A stretch of 64,000 nucleotides of DNA from Frondihabitans sucicola (GTDB lineage: Bacteria > Actinomycetota > Actinomycetes > Actinomycetales > Microbacteriaceae): contig NZ_AP027732.1 in the NCBI RefSeq assembly GCF_030296615.1, positions 3,415,042 through 3,479,041 of the forward strand. The letters run 5' to 3'. Below are positions 9,176-23,324 of this stretch, piece after piece; positions within the stretch are counted from its first letter, which is position 1, and the number at the start of each line of letters is the position of its first letter. The notes beneath the pieces are model-generated. The model was not told where the DNA came from. It saw only the letters and a list, made by a program, of their open reading frames with translations, and did no database searches. The translations under genes were made by a program, and so were the position numbers.

Positions 9176-9579
9176 TGGCCGTCGCGACGAACGCCCTGCC
9201 TGACGTCACCGATGCCCTGGCGGCACCCTACTGGGCGGCCGCGCGCGAGCATCGGCTGTCGATGCAGCAATGTGCCGACTGCGGGTTCATCAGGTGGGCT
9301 CCCGCCGAGCAGTGCCCCCGCTGCCTCTCGCTCGCATCGACGTGGGTCGATCTCTCGGGCGACGGAACCATCTACAGTTACGTCGTCTACCGCAGGTCGC
9401 TGAATCCGAACTTTCCCGACGTTCCGTTCACCGTCGTGCAGGTGGCTCTCGAGGAAGGTCCGATCATGATCACGCGCCTCGTCGACGAACCCGAAGCCGC
9501 GAGAGTCGGAGCAGCCGTGCACGTCGTCTTCACCTACGTGACCGAGGAGGTGACGCTGCCGAACTTCGCTCTCTCGTGA
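9175..9579 (+). CDS. DUF35 zinc-ribbon/OB-fold protein (acyl-CoA-binding partner)
   Basis: This 134-aa protein has a rubredoxin-like zinc ribbon C33-x2-C36…C47-x2-C50 (QQCADCGFIRWAPAEQCPRC) followed by an OB-fold (GTIYSYVVYRR…VVQVALEEGPIMITRLV). DUF35 proteins form complexes with thiolase-fold enzymes, for example in steroid side-chain retro-aldol cleavage and HMG-CoA-synthase-associated systems, and bind acyl-CoA in the OB-fold. The start overlaps the stop of the thiolase-like gene (TGATG at 9173-9177), supporting a stoichiometric complex. It ends close to the convergent tetR. Confidence 0.87.
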   Translation: MAVATNALPDVTDALAAPYWAAAREHRLSMQQCADCGFIRWAPAEQCPRCLSLASTWVDLSGDGTIYSYVVYRRSLNPNFPDVPFTVVQVALEEGPIMITRLVDEPEAARVGAAVHVVFTYVTEEVTLPNFALS

Positions 9580-17932: not shown

Positions 17933-20061
17933 ATGACGATGGAACGCGGCGTCTACGCACAGGGCTGGTTCTCGCGCGGGCACAACTACCACCCGAGCCT
18001 CCCGCCACGACGCCTGAAAATGGTCGAGGACTTCGCTGAATATCGGGCGACGCTCATCACGTGGCCGTCGCTCGGCGGCGGCCCGATCTCTCTCGCATAT
18101 CTCGAGGACGAAGCCTCGGCGCCGATCCCGGCCCGCTACCGCCAGTACGGATTCCTCAAGGACTCGGAGTTCCTCGACGAGTGCCGCAAGCGCGGAGTCA
18201 AAGCATTCAGTGTGATTTTCTCCACGCAGGGATGGGAATTCCCCGTCGAACTGAACGACGCCGAGGACGAGATCCTCGCCATGAACGAGCTTCGCGGAGT
18301 GGGCAAGCCGGGGTGGCTCGGCCTGCGAGAGTTCACGCAGAACCGCTACCCGAAACTTTGGGCTCCCTTCGAGAAGTACTTCCCGGAGGGCCTGACGAAC
18401 AGTCGCGGCGAGAGGGTCACCGACCTCTGGGAGGAGTGCGCATCACGCGACATCCACGGGAACGCACAACACGCGACCTGGCTCGAAGTGCCCGAACTCG
18501 AGCAGCAGTGCCACTACATGGACATCGGCAATCCGGTCTGGCGCGAGTACCTGAAGGCGATCGTCCGGATCCATGTCGACGCGGGAGTCGACGGCATCCA
18601 ATTCGACGAGCCGGACAGCCCGCTGGCAGCCCTCGCCTACGGCGGGTCCTTCAGCTACGACAACGTCACCGGATTCACCGCGTATCTCGCAGCCCTCGAC
18701 CCCTCCTCCGTTCCAGCCTCCGTCGGCGACCTCGGATCGTTCCACTACGGCGAGTGGCTCCTCGCGCGCGGTGTCGACTGGGTCAACCTCAAAGCCGAGG
18801 GCGACGAAGGAGTGGTCGCGCGCCTCTACATGCGATTCATGCAGAAGCAGCAGGCGTCGAACTTCAAGGAGCTCTCCGACTACGTCCGCGACTACGCCGC
18901 GAGCAAGGGCCGCACGGTTCTCGTCTCGTCGAACCTCTACGACGGTGCGACCTGGCACGATCCGCTGGCCGAGATGGTCGACATCCTGGTTCCGGAGCAG
19001 CGCCACACGTTGTATTCGCAACCCGCCTGGATGCGGTACATCGCGGCGTTCGGCGGCGACAAGCCGGTCGCCATCAGCACAAATCCCTACGACGGCGTCA
19101 TGCCCGAGCTTCTTCCCCGGATGAACCGAGGCAAAGACTTCGACCGGTTCCGCGTCATGCTCTACGAGGCTGCCGCTCTGGGGGTGAACATGTCGGTGCC
19201 CTACGGGGCGTGGATGGGCAGCGTCATCAAGGATGCCGTTTGGGCACCCCACGAGGAGACGGTCGAGATCCAGAACTTCCTGGCCGACCACGAGGACCTC
19301 TTTGCCCGTCGCACTGCCAACACGACCCTGATCGTCTACTCGACCGACAGCAATTTCATCGAGAACGTGTGGCAGGTCCAGGGCGCCCCCACGGCAGTAA
19401 GGACAACTACCCGGAAGTCGGTGAGACAGGTCCCCAGGCGCTCCCCTTTCAGCGAGTCGCCAGTGCCATCGCACTGTCCCAGCGCCCGTTCGACGTGGCC
19501 GTCTTCCACGACGGCGTCCTTCGCGAAGACGACGTCTCGGCGGCCCGTCTCGCGCGGTACTCCGAGATCGTCCTCCCCGGCTGCAGTTCGCTGACGGCCG
19601 TGCAGGTGAAGGCACTGGTGGACTACGCCGACGACGGCGGGCGACTCGTCGTGGTCGGCGAGATCGGCGGACCGGGCGCGGACGACATCACGAACCACGA
19701 GAACACTGTCTCCGTAAAGAATCTGGAGCGGGGCGCATCGATCGATGAGCTCCGGTTGGCACCGCCGCAGGTGACGCTGACGACGCTTCCCCACGGAGCG
19801 GTCAATCTTCAGCATCCCGCGGACGACGTCGTGACGCTGCACATCGTCAACTACGACTACGACGTCGAAGCGGGCATCACGCCATCGGCCCTCGACGTGA
19901 GGGTCGAGGTCGCGCTCCCTTCTGCTCCGACTCGGGCGGCACTCTACGCCCCGGGCCAGGCGACGCCGCTCGAGCTGGAGATCACTGCCTCGGAGTCTGG
20001 GGAGACATCCGTCGTCATCCCGTCGATCGGCACCTACGTCATCGTCGAGTTCCGGCGGTAG
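17933..20061 (+). CDS. Putative intracellular glycoside hydrolase: TIM-barrel plus GH42-like trimerisation domain (frame broken once)
   Basis: About 709 aa after repair, with no signal peptide. Residues about 1-480 look like a glycosidase TIM barrel (YAQGWFSRGHNYHP…; VDAGVDGIQFDEPDSPL with D225/E226 as possible catalytic or binding acids; …VSSNLYDGATWHDPLAEMVDILVPEQRHTLYSQPAW…). Residues about 490-600 resemble the Rossmann-like beta-galactosidase trimerisation (GATase-like) domain (PFDVAVFHDGVL…YSEIVLPGCSSLTAVQVKALVDYADDGGRLVVVGE), followed by a beta-sandwich tail. The frame breaks in C5 at 19386-19390; one C restores GAPHGSKDNYPEVGE. Family assignment to GH42-like is by architecture only. 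It should cleave the sugar imported by the upstream transporter. Confidence 0.7.
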
Positions 20062-20357: not shown

Positions 20358-20708
20358 TCAGACGGTCGCGAAGACAGCGGCAACGGCGTCGAGTGCTCCG
20401 GGGACGAGGGCGTAGTAGGCCCAAACACCTCGCTTGTCGCGGCTCAGGAGCCCCGCGTCGACGAGGATTTTGAGGTGATGTGAGACCGTCGGCTGGCTGA
20501 GGCCGAGTGGTTCGATGAGATCGCAGACGCAGGCTTCGTGCCCGTCATGCGCGGCGACCATCGAGATCAGGCGTAGCCGGGCGGGATCGGCGAGAGCCTT
20601 CAGGGTCTTCGCGAGCGCTTCGGCGTCGGCGGCACCGAGCGGCTCTCTGGTGAGGGGCGCACAGCAGGCCGTGACATCGGTGAGAGGAAGCAGTTCGGTG
20701 ACCGGCAT
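20358..20708 (-). CDS. arsR: Arsenic-responsive ArsR/SmtB repressor
   Basis: A 116-aa winged-helix repressor (LAKTLKALADPARLRLISMV; HTH PLGLSQPTVSHHLKILVDAGLL). Cysteines are C15-C16 (TACCAPL) and C60/C62 (EACVCDL). This resembles the Corynebacterium ArsR As(III) site, built from Cys15, Cys16 and a Cys near 55, rather than the E. coli site made only of the CVCDL helix. The ATG at 20708 is preferred over the longer open frame for homology and length. It is divergent from arsC, with two operator-like inverted repeats between them; arsenite binding should release it. Confidence 0.93.
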   Translation of the reverse strand: MPVTELLPLTDVTACCAPLTREPLGAADAEALAKTLKALADPARLRLISMVAAHDGHEACVCDLIEPLGLSQPTVSHHLKILVDAGLLSRDKRGVWAYYALVPGALDAVAAVFATV

Positions 20709-20724
20709 GACACCAGTCTCCCCA

Positions 20725-20784
20725 GACATTGACAGTTGTCGATGTCTTGATCCACACTCAAGGCATCGATGTTCGTCAATGCCT
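20725..20784. promoter_or_regulatory. arsR: ArsR operator pair in the arsR-arsC divergent region
   Basis: GACATTGAC (20725-20733) and GTCGATGTC (20738-20746) form an inverted repeat with one mismatch in nine and a 4-base spacer. A second, weaker repeat lies at 20761-20784 (AGGCAT…ATGCCT, inner CATCGA…TCAATG), just before the arsC start. Both match the CATyGAC half-site layout of ArsR-family operators. Their positions would let ArsR block transcription in both directions. Confidence 0.65.
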
Positions 20785-20793
20785 GGAGTGGTG

Positions 20794-21219
20794 ATGACCA
20801 AGAAGCCGACAGTGCTTTTCGTGTGTGTTCATAACGCCGGCCGGTCCCAGATGGCCGCCGGATTCATGAAAGGACTTTCCGGGGGCCGAGTCGACGTGAT
20901 GTCCGGCGGGTCCGAGCCCGGCAGCGCGATCAATCCCGTCGCGGTCGCCGTCATGGCCGAGGAAGGGATCGACATCACCGGCAACGTGCCCCAGCTGTTG
21001 ACGACAGACCAGGTCCGTGAGTCCGACGTGGTGATCACGATGGGCTGCGGCGACGCGTGTCCCGTCTTCCCCGGGACGAGATACGAGGACTGGGAACTGG
21101 TCGACCCGGCCGGTAAGACCCTCGACGAGGTGCGGCCGATCCGCGACGACATCCGAGGCCGCGTCCAGGCGCTCCTGGCAGAACTTCTTCCGGCCGAGGC
21201 CGACGAGGTGCTGTCGTGA
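20794..21219 (+). CDS. arsC: Arsenate reductase, LMW-phosphatase type (mycothiol/mycoredoxin or thioredoxin dependent)
   Basis: A 141-aa enzyme with the CX5R phosphate/arsenate loop at the N terminus (FVCVHNAGRSQMA, C11 to R17) and further cysteines in TMGCGDACPVFPG. The sequence AAGFMKGLSGGRVDVMSGGSEPG followed by ELVDPAGKTLDEVRPIRDDI is typical of actinobacterial ArsC proteins that use mycothiol and mycoredoxin. It reduces arsenate to arsenite in the cytoplasm. TGGAG precedes ATG 20794. The stop overlaps the next GTG (GTGA 21216-21219). Confidence 0.92.
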   Translation: MTKKPTVLFVCVHNAGRSQMAAGFMKGLSGGRVDVMSGGSEPGSAINPVAVAVMAEEGIDITGNVPQLLTTDQVRESDVVITMGCGDACPVFPGTRYEDWELVDPAGKTLDEVRPIRDDIRGRVQALLAELLPAEADEVLS

Positions 21220-22517
21220 CGATGACACTGACGGTGCCTGCACGGCACGATGCATCCCGCCTGGTCGGCCTCCCGGTCGCCGTGATCGGTGCCGGACCCG
21301 TCGGCCTTGCCGCGGCGGCACATCTCCTCGAGAGGGGTCTGGACGTCCTGGTCCTGGAATCCGGCGAAACCGCCGGCAGCGGGGTGTCGTCGTGGGGCCA
21401 CGTGCGCCTGTTCTCGCCCTGGGCCGAAGTCGTCGACCCGGCCGCGGGTCGACTCCTTGATGCGGTCGGCTGGGACGCTCCCGGGGCCACGATCCTGCCG
21501 TTGGGTTCTGACGTCGTCACGGAGTACCTGCTCCCCCTCGCCCAGACCCCGGCTCTCTCGGCTGTGATCCGCTATTCGTCGAAGGTCGACGCGGTGTCCC
21601 GGCAGGGAATGGACAAAACCCGCTCCCAGGGCCGCGCCGACGTCCCGTTCCTCCTCCGAGTCTCGACGCCGACCGGCCCCGAGTCCCTTCTCGCCCGTGC
21701 CGTCATCGACACCTCCGGAACCCTCTCGGAAGCGAACGGGCTCCTCTCCTCCGGCTGGAACGCGGACGCGGATGACGCGAGCTGGCTGGCGAATGCGATG
21801 CCAGATGTTCTCGGTGCCGAGCGCGACCGATTCGCAGGCCACCGCGTCATCGTCGTCGGCGCCGGTCACTCGGCCGCGAACACGCTCCTCGCCCTGGCGA
21901 AGGTGAAAGACACGGAGCCGGCGACGGAGATCGTCTGGGTGGTTCGCAACGCCAACCCGGTCCGGGTCTTCGGCGACGGTGCCGATGGTCTGGAGGCGCG
22001 CGGACGACTGGGCACTACCACTCAGGACCTCGTTCGCCACGGCGTCGTGGAGCTGGTCGACTCCTTCGAGATCGACGATGCACGGCCCGACGGCGACGGT
22101 GCCCTGCTGACGGGCCGTCGCGACGGGGAGCCGTTCGAGCTGCGCGGCGACGTCGTCGTGGCCGCGACGGGCTTCCGCCCCGACCTCTCGATCCTGCGGG
22201 AGATCCGCCTGTCGCTGGATGACATCGTGGAAGCGCCTCGAGCGTTGGCGCCGCTGATCGACCCGAACGTTCACTCCTGCGGAACCGTGCCTCCCCATGG
22301 CGTCGCGGAGTTGACGCAACCGGAACCGAACTTCTTCATCGCCGGGATGAAGTCCTATGGCCGAGCCCCGACGTTCCTCATGCTCACCGGCTATGAGCAG
22401 GTGCGCTCCCTTGCTGACGAACTCGCCGGCAACCACGACTCCGCCCGCATCGTGCAGCTCACCCTCCCCGAAACCGGCGTCTGCTCCTCCGGAAGCGGAT
22501 CTTCCTGCTGCTCGTGA
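21216..22517 (+). CDS. FAD/NAD(P)-binding flavoprotein of the ars operon (ArsO-like)
   Basis: A 433-aa two-dinucleotide-fold flavoprotein. The FAD motif is VAVIGAGPVGLAAAAHL (residues about 21-37), the NAD(P) motif VIVVGAGHSAANTLLAL lies near residue 210, and VVVAATGFRPDLS is the monooxygenase/oxidoreductase ATG motif. Flavin monooxygenase-like genes (arsO) occur in Streptomyces ars clusters; a role in modifying arsenicals is inference. The last residues are unusual, with C423 and a terminal SCCS (C431, C432), a possible metalloid-binding tail. It is translationally coupled at both ends (GTGA overlaps with arsC and the GNAT gene). Confidence 0.8.
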   Translation: MTMTLTVPARHDASRLVGLPVAVIGAGPVGLAAAAHLLERGLDVLVLESGETAGSGVSSWGHVRLFSPWAEVVDPAAGRLLDAVGWDAPGATILPLGSDVVTEYLLPLAQTPALSAVIRYSSKVDAVSRQGMDKTRSQGRADVPFLLRVSTPTGPESLLARAVIDTSGTLSEANGLLSSGWNADADDASWLANAMPDVLGAERDRFAGHRVIVVGAGHSAANTLLALAKVKDTEPATEIVWVVRNANPVRVFGDGADGLEARGRLGTTTQDLVRHGVVELVDSFEIDDARPDGDGALLTGRRDGEPFELRGDVVVAATGFRPDLSILREIRLSLDDIVEAPRALAPLIDPNVHSCGTVPPHGVAELTQPEPNFFIAGMKSYGRAPTFLMLTGYEQVRSLADELAGNHDSARIVQLTLPETGVCSSGSGSSCCS

Positions 22518-23035
22518 GAGAAACCATCCACACCAGGGCCATGACCGCGGCCGACTGGCCGGCCGTCGAAGGCATCTATGCCGAGGGGATCGCAACCGGC
22601 AACGCGACCTTCCAGGACAGGGCCCCCTCCTGGGCCGAGTTCGACAGCGGCAAGATCCCCGACCTCCGCCTCGTCGCCACCGATGCAAAAGGCGAGCTCA
22701 TCGGGTGGGTCGCGGCCCCGCAGACGTCGTCTCGACCGGTGTATCGGGGTGTCATCGAGCACTCCGTCTATGTCGCCGAGGCCGCCCGCGGTTCCGGAGT
22801 GGGGCACCTGCTCCTGGCGGACTTCGTCACCGCATCGGAAGCGGCCGGAGTATGGATGATCCAATCCGCGATCTTCCCTGAGAACCTCGCGAGCCTCGCT
22901 CTTCATGCCGCTCACGGGTTCCGAGAAGTCGGCATCCGGGAACGCATCGGCCGGATGAGCTTCGGCCCGTGGGCGGGGCAGTGGCGGGACAACATCTTCG
23001 TCGAGCGACGCAGCGACGTTGCTGGAACCACGTAG
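22514..23035 (+). CDS. GNAT N-acetyltransferase, ArsN1/phosphinothricin-acetyltransferase-like
   Basis: A 173-aa GNAT enzyme of the phosphinothricin-acetyltransferase branch (R-x-M-x-x-x-D-x-x-x-V-x-x-I-Y near the N terminus; SVYVAEAARGSGVGHLLLADFV acetyl-CoA loop; PENLASLALHAAHGFREVGIRERIGR). In arsenic operons this branch (ArsN1) acetylates arsinothricin, an arsenic-containing glutamate-analogue antibiotic. The operon position makes that more likely than glufosinate resistance. The start codon overlaps the flavoprotein stop (GTGA). The last gene of the operon. Confidence 0.8.
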   Translation: MRETIHTRAMTAADWPAVEGIYAEGIATGNATFQDRAPSWAEFDSGKIPDLRLVATDAKGELIGWVAAPQTSSRPVYRGVIEHSVYVAEAARGSGVGHLLLADFVTASEAAGVWMIQSAIFPENLASLALHAAHGFREVGIRERIGRMSFGPWAGQWRDNIFVERRSDVAGTT

Positions 23036-23155: not shown

Positions 23156-23159
23156 GCTG

Positions 23160-23231
<72 letters not shown>

Positions 23232-23324
23232 GTGGCCTGTGGAAACTCGAGTTCCGCAACCGAGGAACAACATTAGCATGAGATCTGACGCCTCTTGAAC
23301 GCGTCCCGGCACCGAAGGAGAACC

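What the first reader, a model, noticed from the sequence alone, without database searches (positions are those of the whole stretch)
20358..23035. Arsenic operon with a flavoprotein and ArsN1-like acetyltransferase but no efflux pump
arsR is divergent from arsC-flavoprotein-GNAT, all with GTGA overlaps. No Acr3, ArsB or ArsA gene is present, although reduction by ArsC without export would raise arsenite toxicity. The cluster may handle organoarsenicals such as arsinothricin, or the pump lies elsewhere.
Basis: partly seen in the sequence, partly recalled or inferred. Interest (0 to 1): 0.5.

Follow-up and report, generated by a model that had tools for sequence, protein, structure and literature searches.

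The report
Pumpless arsenic operon with cysteine-tailed flavoprotein
A small bacterial arsenic-resistance operon really does lack an efflux pump; the same genome carries an arsenite-type channel on a separate, duplicated mobile island, and the operon's flavoprotein belongs to a widespread family whose tail carries paired cysteines of the kind that can grip arsenic or pass electrons to the arsenate reductase beside it.

Summary
In detail: divergent arsR and arsC-flavoprotein-GNAT, all intact, with two ArsR-type boxes in the gap. No pump lies in the operon, and no Acr3 or canonical ArsB was found in the genome. 'No exporter' is still wrong for the cell: an AqpS-like channel (Val in place of the pore arginine) lies with a second ars set on a 19.2-kb island present twice (C1, C2). 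Arsenite probably leaves by that channel. Of 398 family genomes, 162 carry the flavoprotein; 44 of these have neither Acr3, ArsB nor an AqpS-like channel, so exporter-free versions recur. The flavoprotein is the least ordinary part: 89 of 92 distinct relatives end in a vicinal-cysteine tail, against 0 of 378 other ars-linked proteins. By score it is not ArsO, and by motif neither a standard FMO, a thioredoxin reductase nor Bdr. In one relative it is fused to ArsC, so I take it as ArsC's partner; an organoarsenical oxidase is the main rival. The GNAT is ArsN1-like but below the ArsN1 cut-offs, with Ser for arsinothricin-binding Arg75 in 46 of 48. No substrate is shown. New variant of a known kind.

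The parts
20358..20708 (-). arsR, ArsR/SmtB repressor, 116 aa, with N-terminal CC (TACCAPLT) and CVC
   Evidence: best PDB relative 6j0e 'Arsenic responsive repressor ArsR' (E 9.7e-16), whose aligned part also has the N-terminal CC; a CC motif in 77 and a CVC motif in 78 of 85 arsR relatives of the fetched loci, duplicates included.
20728..20743 (.). ArsR-type box 1, ATTGACAGTTGTCGAT
   Evidence: Pattern ATYRAY-N4-RTYRAT, taken from this gap: 3 in the window against 0.10 expected. Independent test in the 80 named loci: 83 boxes in 18,090 bases at arsR starts against 13 in 1,524,076 bases elsewhere; 47 of 67 loci with arsR have one. Also two before the island flavoprotein.
20765..20780 (.). ArsR-type box 2, ATCGATGTTCGTCAAT
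   Evidence: As box 1.
20794..21219 (+). arsC, LMW-PTP-fold arsenate reductase (CVHNAGRSQ, MGCGDAC)
   Evidence: below the cut-offs of the glutaredoxin and thioredoxin equivalogs (93.9/157.6 and 83.3/174.3 bits).
21216..22517 (+). FAD/NAD(P) flavoprotein, 433 aa, two dinucleotide-binding motifs, C-terminal SSCCS
22482..22514 (+). flexible C-terminal tail with Cys423 and the Cys431-Cys432 pair
   Evidence: CC in the last 60 residues of 89 of 92 distinct relatives against 0 of 378 distinct other ars-linked ORFs; residues 419-433 have pLDDT under 50.
22514..23035 (+). GNAT acetyltransferase, ArsN1/PAT-like, 173 aa
   Evidence: catalytic Glu82 and Arg74 (equivalent of PpArsN1 Arg77) kept, Arg75 equivalent is Ser72.

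Best explanation
This is an ArsR-controlled arsenic module of actinobacterial type that has no exporter of its own. Shown by sequence: ArsR sits divergent over two palindromic boxes; ArsC belongs to the LMW-PTP arsenate reductases; the flavoprotein carries a flexible vicinal-cysteine tail and, in one relative, is fused to ArsC; the GNAT belongs to an ars-linked ArsN1-like subgroup. Inferred: an arsenical releases ArsR; ArsC reduces arsenate; the flavoprotein works with ArsC, most likely passing electrons from NAD(P)H through FAD to its cysteine tail and on to ArsC or its thiol partner, or taking over the arsenite that ArsC makes. The arsenite then leaves downhill through the AqpS-like channel encoded with a second ars set on a mobile island (two copies); relatives without it would need another exit. 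The GNAT most likely acetylates an amino-acid-like antibiotic, arsinothricin or a relative.
For: No Acr3 or SBF and no canonical ArsB in G000. AqpS-like MIP at C1:2557906-2558625 and C2:224003-224722, 67% identical to the arsR-linked MIPs of L011 and L022. V or I follows the second NPA in 31 of 31 distinct ars-locus MIPs that could be read, of 40 distinct MIP ORFs; two other MIPs of this genome have NPAR (a third, split over two frames, was not read). Fusion: in L061 (Salinibacterium sp. G-O1) flavoprotein and ArsC are one open frame of 598 codons, 1 of 121 loci scanned. arsC (over 60% identity) lies within 5 kb in 56 of 80 named loci, any ArsC match in 64, and within about 2 kb in 18 of 20 exporter-free loci fetched. 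Nearest fold is a disulfide reductase, Bdr/YpdA (Z 30.1). CC tail in 89 of 92 distinct flavoproteins against 0 of 378.
Against: No substrate or partner is shown for the flavoprotein or the GNAT. There is no CxxC and no GxGPC cysteine beside the flavin (0 of 97 distinct each), so the path from FAD to the tail is unclear. The fusion is a single case. 16 of 80 loci have no ArsC match within 5 kb, some of them with short flanks. Exporters go with the flavoprotein more often than not: 118 of 162 genomes with it against 82 of 236 without have one, so pumplessness is not its mark. The AqpS-like channel sits in another operon, divergent from an ArsR-ArsC fusion; co-regulation with the window operon is not shown. 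The GNAT lacks the Arg75 equivalent. A sub-cut-off ArsB-superfamily permease exists in the genome.
Confidence: 0.42

Rival explanations
1. The flavoprotein catches a trivalent organoarsenical such as methylarsenite with its cysteine tail and oxidises it to the less toxic pentavalent form, as ArsH and ArsV do; with the GNAT it forms an organoarsenical arm that needs no pump.
For: ArsH and ArsV are reported to oxidise methylarsenite (PMC10080717, passages). A GNAT lies within 3 kb in 41 of 80 loci. SMFMO-type monooxygenases are among the nearest folds (4a9w, Z 25.1) and ArsO is the best NCBIfam hit, though weak (51.9 bits). 44 of 162 genomes have none of the three exporters.
Against: FMO motif FxGx3Hx3[YFW] in 0 of 97 distinct sequences; a disulfide reductase fold scores higher; one relative is fused to ArsC, which is not expected for an organoarsenical oxidase.
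Confidence: 0.28
2. The ArsB-superfamily permease encoded about 186 kb away is the real pump of this strain.
For: PF02040 hit over the Pfam cut-off at C1:3248375-3249163 (45 bits against 22.2); similar permeases at 87-97 bits (TIGR00935) in G004, G137 and G083.
Against: 70 and 33 bits for its two pieces against a curated ArsB cut-off of 457, where Curtobacterium ArsB scores 623. 6 of the 14 locally pumpless genomes tested have no TIGR00935 match at E 0.001; the other 8 have one below the cut-off. No arsR-like ORF was found in the 14 kb round it. In this assembly it is split over two reading frames, by a real break or a sequencing error.
Confidence: 0.12
3. The operon is a remnant: an ordinary ars operon that lost its exporter and is on the way out.
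For: In many relatives a MIP gene follows arsR directly, and the window has none there.
Against: All four frames are open, both boxes are present, and the closest relative, G083, has the same arsR/arsC-flavoprotein order at 82-89% identity, again without an exporter over the thresholds used. The same four-gene order without local exporter occurs in L020 (short right flank), L036, G107, G158 and G201.
Confidence: 0.08

Closest known systems
S. meliloti-type ars operon with AqpS (channel export of ArsC-made arsenite)
   Same: ArsR, ArsC and a MIP channel in place of a pump (PMC6205960, PMC9454679, passages); here too the channel is ars-linked.
   Different: The channel is not in the window operon but in a second, mobile ars set; an FAD/NAD(P) flavoprotein and a GNAT are added.
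ArsO (NF040505; putative oxidoreductase/monooxygenase of Streptomyces and Rhodococcus ars clusters)
   Same: FAD/NAD(P) flavoprotein encoded in actinobacterial ars clusters (PMC6514093, passages).
   Different: 51.9 bits against a cut-off of 425; conserved KSYGRAPTFL, HSCG, TGVC and CC-tail signatures mark this group. Whether ArsO proteins have a CC tail was not tested.
ArsN1 (PpArsN1) and PAT acetyltransferases
   Same: GNAT fold and ars linkage; catalytic Glu and the Arg77 equivalent kept in 48 of 48 readable distinct sequences.
   Different: Below the cut-offs of ArsN1a, ArsN1b and PAT; Arg75 equivalent is Ser in 46 of 48.
Bdr/YpdA bacillithiol disulfide reductase and SMFMO-type flavoprotein monooxygenases
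   Same: Overall fold: Z 30.1, 2.8 A over 320 residues (7a76_C) and Z 25.1, 3.5 A over 310 residues (4a9w_A).
   Different: Neither the GxGPC cysteine of Bdr nor the FMO motif is present (0 of 97 distinct each).

Membership tests
ars operon (ArsR-controlled arsenic resistance) | ArsR/SmtB repressor with operator at the promoter | tested here: met
   NF033788 over cut-off; two palindromic boxes, the same pattern strongly enriched at arsR starts of relatives. Binding itself not tested.
ars operon (ArsR-controlled arsenic resistance) | arsenate reductase gene | tested here: met
   PF01451 over cut-off; PDB 3t38 E 4e-38.
ars operon (ArsR-controlled arsenic resistance) | dedicated exporter in the operon | tested here: not met
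   None in 20358-23035; no Acr3 or canonical ArsB found in the genome; AqpS-like channel elsewhere.
ArsN1 arsinothricin N-acetyltransferase | score over the curated ArsN1a or ArsN1b cut-off | tested here: not met
   115.5 against 170 and 67.9 against 210 bits.
ArsN1 arsinothricin N-acetyltransferase | Arg75 and Arg77 of the arsinothricin site (PMC6465285) | tested here: not met
   Arg77 equivalent kept, Arg75 equivalent is Ser; assigned by spacing to the catalytic acid, not by a direct alignment to PpArsN1.
ArsN1 arsinothricin N-acetyltransferase | acetylates arsinothricin | not testable with these tools
   Needs the enzyme assay.
ArsO flavin monooxygenase | score over the NF040505 cut-off (425) | tested here: not met
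   51.9 bits; the island copy 63.6 bits.
class B flavin monooxygenase (FMO) | FxGxxxHxxx[YFW] motif (recalled) | tested here: not met
   0 of 97 distinct flavoproteins.
thioredoxin reductase | CxxC redox motif (recalled) | tested here: not met
   0 of 97 distinct in the body of the protein.
Bdr/YpdA bacillithiol disulfide reductase | cysteine in the FAD motif (GGGPCG in the 7a76 alignment) and TIGR04018 cut-off | tested here: not met
   0 of 97 distinct with GxGPC; 44.6 against 339.9 bits.
ArsV methylarsenite oxidase | sequence similarity to ArsV | not testable with these tools
   The primary paper is not held and no ArsV sequence or model turned up.
AqpS-type arsenite channel (island gene) | ars-linked MIP with two NPA-type boxes and no arginine after the second | tested here: met
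   NPV and NPA boxes, Val after NPA; V or I in 31 of 31 distinct readable ars-locus MIPs. That S. meliloti AqpS has Val there is recalled. Arsenite conduction not tested.

The most novel reading that the evidence does not exclude
The cysteine-tailed flavoprotein is the founding member of a new class of arsenic oxidoreductase: a dedicated NAD(P)H-fed partner of ArsC whose flexible cysteine pair works like the C-terminal pair of mercuric reductase. ArsC plus flavoprotein would be a self-contained arsenate-processing unit, fused into one protein in Salinibacterium sp. G-O1. In about a quarter of the flavoprotein-bearing genomes of this family (44 of 162) it would work without Acr3, ArsB or an AqpS-like channel.
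Probability: 0.33. Interest if true: 0.68.

Novelty: new variant of a known kind. Interest (0 to 1): 0.47.

Why it matters
Arsenic resistance is usually described as reduce-and-pump. Here exporter types (ArsB, Acr3, MIP, MFS or none) swap round a steady core of arsR and a flavoprotein whose paired-cysteine tail is shared by 89 of 92 distinct relatives, yet in the 15 plasmid records listed it is called only 'FAD-dependent oxidoreductase', 'NAD(P)-binding protein' or 'putative Secreted protein', or left without a name. If it feeds ArsC, it fills a missing reductase; if it oxidises trivalent organoarsenicals, it adds a resistance determinant against arsenical antibiotics in soil and plant-associated actinobacteria.

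Tried and rejected
Rejected: (a) 'Acr3 or ArsB must be elsewhere': searched with PF01758, TIGR00832, PF02040 and TIGR00935 and not found as canonical members. (b) ArsB-like permease as the pump: far below the ArsB cut-off. (c) Flavoprotein as ArsO, FMO, thioredoxin reductase or Bdr: cut-offs and motifs not met. (d) MFS transporter found beside some relatives: no match in the window's genome at E 1e-15.

Exporters near them were counted above 50% identity (ArsB, Acr3) or 55% (MIP); a 35% Acr3 match in L080 and a 38% MIP match in L065 were not counted. The first look of the 398-genome searches scores few candidates per genome (for example 16(7)), so 'none' counts can be too high. In one search the cuts were E 1e-60 (Acr3, flavoprotein) and 1e-50 (ArsB, AqpS-like); groups I and II there are split by E-value only. 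For some searches I gave 14 loci picked as locally pumpless; four further 'none' loci (L030, L058, L066, L081) were not given, and L053 proved to have an MFS. In one search I fetched 20 of the 44 'none' genomes. Searches count some loci twice (for example L132 is L004 again); repeat them without duplicates, by slightly different rules (92 and 97 flavoproteins), and their numbers are the ones used. The flavoproteins without a CC in the last 60 residues are L061 (fused to ArsC; its pair stands at the joint), one copy of L069 and L071. L064 was dropped from alignment A1 because its reference holds a stop. The output was cut. The FMO and CxxC patterns were not run on a positive control. After the filing check I changed the leading reading from organoarsenical oxidase to ArsC partner because of the fusion found, and moved the odds accordingly. 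Paper searches for this flavoprotein or its tail listed nothing that I recognised as describing it; listings with titles and starts of abstracts were seen, and passages only of PMC6514093, PMC4435449, PMC6205960, PMC6465285, PMC9144182, PMC10080717 and PMC9454679. The ArsV/ArsW paper is not held.
Full report
WHAT IS THERE. The four genes are real and intact. arsR runs leftwards from ATG 20708 to 20358; arsC (ATG 20794 to 21219), a flavoprotein (21216-22517) and a GNAT (22514-23035) run rightwards, with GTGA overlaps at the last two junctions. The 85-bp gap between arsR and arsC holds two copies of ATYRAY-N4-RTYRAT, at 20728 and 20765; shuffles give 0.10 expected in the whole 64-kb window, where there are three. 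The pattern was read off this gap, so that number alone proves little. The independent test is in the 80 named relatives: 83 boxes in 18,090 bases at arsR starts against 13 in 1,524,076 bases elsewhere, and 47 of 67 loci with an arsR have one. Two boxes also precede the second flavoprotein of this genome. The operon lies between a gene on its left that ends at 20061 and a tRNA-Lys at 23159-23232.

WHO CARRIES IT. The genome has 4.68 Mb in two contigs and is listed as 92% complete. Its family is Microbacteriaceae by inference: family members G318 and G357 have contigs of exactly the lengths of named Curtobacterium contigs (73,480 and 131,918 bases). The genus was not named. Relatives of the flavoprotein also lie on 120 of 72,556 plasmid records, Streptomyces and Rhodococcus most often.

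IS THERE A PUMP ELSEWHERE? No SBF or Acr3 match was found, while the controls ring. One PF02040 match (45 bits) is an ArsB-superfamily permease split over two frames in this assembly; its pieces score 70 and 33 bits against a curated ArsB cut-off of 457, where the Curtobacterium ArsB of L002 scores 623. MIP channels are present, and one of them matters. At C1:2557906-2558625, and again at C2:224003-224722, lies a MIP 67% identical to the arsR-linked MIPs of L011 and L022. It sits in a second ars set with an ArsR, a second flavoprotein (48%), a second GNAT (76%), an ArsR-ArsC fusion, a CoA-disulfide-reductase-like flavoprotein and a further ArsC. The set lies on a 19.2-kb island that is 99.96% identical on C1 (2549639-2568866) and C2 (213762-232988), with 63-bp stretches near its ends that match each other inverted at 90%, and recombinase-like genes at its left end (the recombinase names rest on my reading of the sequences, not on a profile). 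After the second NPA box this MIP has Val; V or I stands there in 31 of 31 distinct ars-locus MIPs that could be read, while two other MIPs of this genome have NPAR. Loss of that pore arginine is, from memory, also a feature of S. meliloti AqpS, which lets ArsC-made arsenite out downhill (PMC6205960 and PMC9454679, passages). A survey of 685 ars operons found 18 MIPs, each the only transporter of its operon (PMC4435449, passages). So the likely exit in this strain is a channel.

HOW GENERAL IS PUMPLESSNESS? Around the flavoprotein in 80 named loci the exporter type changes: MIP in 32 (7 of them with an MFS), ArsB in 17 (3 with an MFS), Acr3 in 9, MFS alone in 5, none in 17, of which 6 have short flanks. 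One paper names acr3 as part of the actinobacterial core and found arsB in one genus only, Dermacoccus (PMC6514093, passages); the ArsB of Curtobacterium adds to that. I picked 14 loci without Acr3, ArsB or MIP nearby (one, L053, has an MFS) and searched their whole genomes: Acr3 over cut-off 0 of 14, canonical ArsB 0 of 14 (8 of 14 have a match below the cut-off), AqpS-like at 60% identity or more 2 of 14, the MFS in full in 2 of 14 and in part in one more; the positive controls L044 (Acr3) and L002 (ArsB) rang. In 398 genomes of the family, 162 have the flavoprotein, 72 Acr3, 13 ArsB and 122 the AqpS-like channel. Of the 162, 70 have the channel alone, 34 Acr3 alone, 6 both, 8 ArsB and 44 none of the three. 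The other side of the table matters too: 118 of 162 genomes with the flavoprotein have an exporter against 82 of 236 without, so the flavoprotein normally keeps company with one, and exporter-free genomes are commoner without it. Of 20 of the 44 loci fetched, 18 have an arsC within about 2 kb, 7 a GNAT, and one an MFS of the L053 kind. The window's nearest relative, G083 (82% in the flavoprotein, 85% in ArsC, 89% in ArsR), has arsR/arsC-flavoprotein, no GNAT, and no exporter over the thresholds used, though a 40% MIP and an 87-bit ArsB-superfamily permease exist. The same four-gene order without local exporter occurs in L020 (short right flank), L036, G107, G158 and G201.

THE FLAVOPROTEIN. 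It has two dinucleotide-binding motifs and a KSYGRAPTFL block that is invariant in the 33 aligned sequences. Its cysteines are 355, 423, 431 and 432; it ends SSCCS. HSCG occurs in 96 and TG[VA]C in 97 of 97 distinct sequences. A CC pair lies in the last 60 residues of 89 of 92 distinct relatives, while none of 378 distinct other ORFs matching ars-linked seeds in the same loci (Acr3, ArsB, MIP, CoADR-like, ArsC, GNAT, ArsR) has one. In Curtobacterium cysteines and cysteine pairs repeat along a longer tail. In L061 (Salinibacterium sp. G-O1) the frame runs on from TGVCC without a stop into a full ArsC: a flavoprotein-ArsC fusion of 598 codons, the only one in 121 loci scanned; an internal start for ArsC is not excluded. 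AlphaFold2 gives a confident body (mean pLDDT 82.9) and a disordered tail, residues 419-433. The nearest solved folds are Bdr/YpdA (Z 30.1) and, lower down, SMFMO (Z 25.1), but the FMO motif, CxxC and the GxGPC cysteine are absent from all 97, and scores are far below the ArsO and YpdA cut-offs. A paired-cysteine flexible tail recalls mercuric reductase and C-terminal-cysteine thioredoxin reductases (recalled). Two roles fit: partner of ArsC (electron donor, or acceptor of its arsenite), or capture and oxidation of a trivalent organoarsenical. The fusion, the nearness of arsC and the reductase fold favour the first; the GNAT company favours the second. arsR is the steadier neighbour (69 of 80 within 5 kb, against 64 for any ArsC match), which fits both.

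THE GNAT. It is ArsN1-like (115.5 bits against 170 for ArsN1a). In PpArsN1, Arg75 and Arg77 of the partner chain contact arsinothricin and Asp85 takes the place of the catalytic Glu (PMC6465285, passages). Counting from the catalytic acid, this subgroup keeps the Arg77 equivalent and the acid as Glu (48 of 48 readable of 49 distinct), but has Ser for Arg75 in 46 of 48. The PAT 9igk has both arginines in the alignment. Arsinothricin may still be the substrate, but it should not be assumed.

VERDICT. The sequence favours a channel elsewhere over a missing pump, shows that exporter-free versions recur in the family, and points to the cysteine-tailed flavoprotein as the part worth an experiment. 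New variant of a known kind.

Noticed in passing
L061:9905-11701: Flavoprotein and ArsC form one open frame of 598 codons in Salinibacterium sp. G-O1, with TGVCC at the joint; the only such case in 121 loci scanned.
   Followed up: partly
G000 C1:2549639-2568866 (L096, L092, L097) and C2:213762-232988 (L098, L093, L099): A 19.2-kb island with 63-bp inverted stretches near its ends, recombinase-like genes, ars genes and cation-efflux-like genes is present twice, 99.96% identical, in one genome.
   Followed up: partly
L092:6159-6833 and L092:7651-9032: ArsR-ArsC fusion protein, and a CoA-disulfide-reductase-like flavoprotein (TIGR03385 313 bits against 579) beside the AqpS-like channel; the latter kind also lies in Curtobacterium ArsB operons.
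   Followed up: partly
window 9336-9351: A third perfect ATYRAY-N4-RTYRAT box lies inside open reading frames, away from any ars gene seen.
   Followed up: no
G000 C1:3248369-3249494 (L001, L095): ArsB-superfamily permease split over two reading frames in this assembly; G004 and G137 match it in one open frame. A MIP at C1:645499-646187 is likewise reported as two pieces, so the assembly may hold indel errors.
   Followed up: partly
L053:11402-12613, L031, L043, L055, L057, L059, L068: An MFS transporter lies beside the flavoprotein or the arsR-MIP pair in a number of relatives and may be another ars exporter.
   Followed up: partly
L002-L010, L012, L015-L019: Curtobacterium and Tersicoccus flavoproteins carry cysteines and cysteine pairs repeated along a longer tail.
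   Followed up: no
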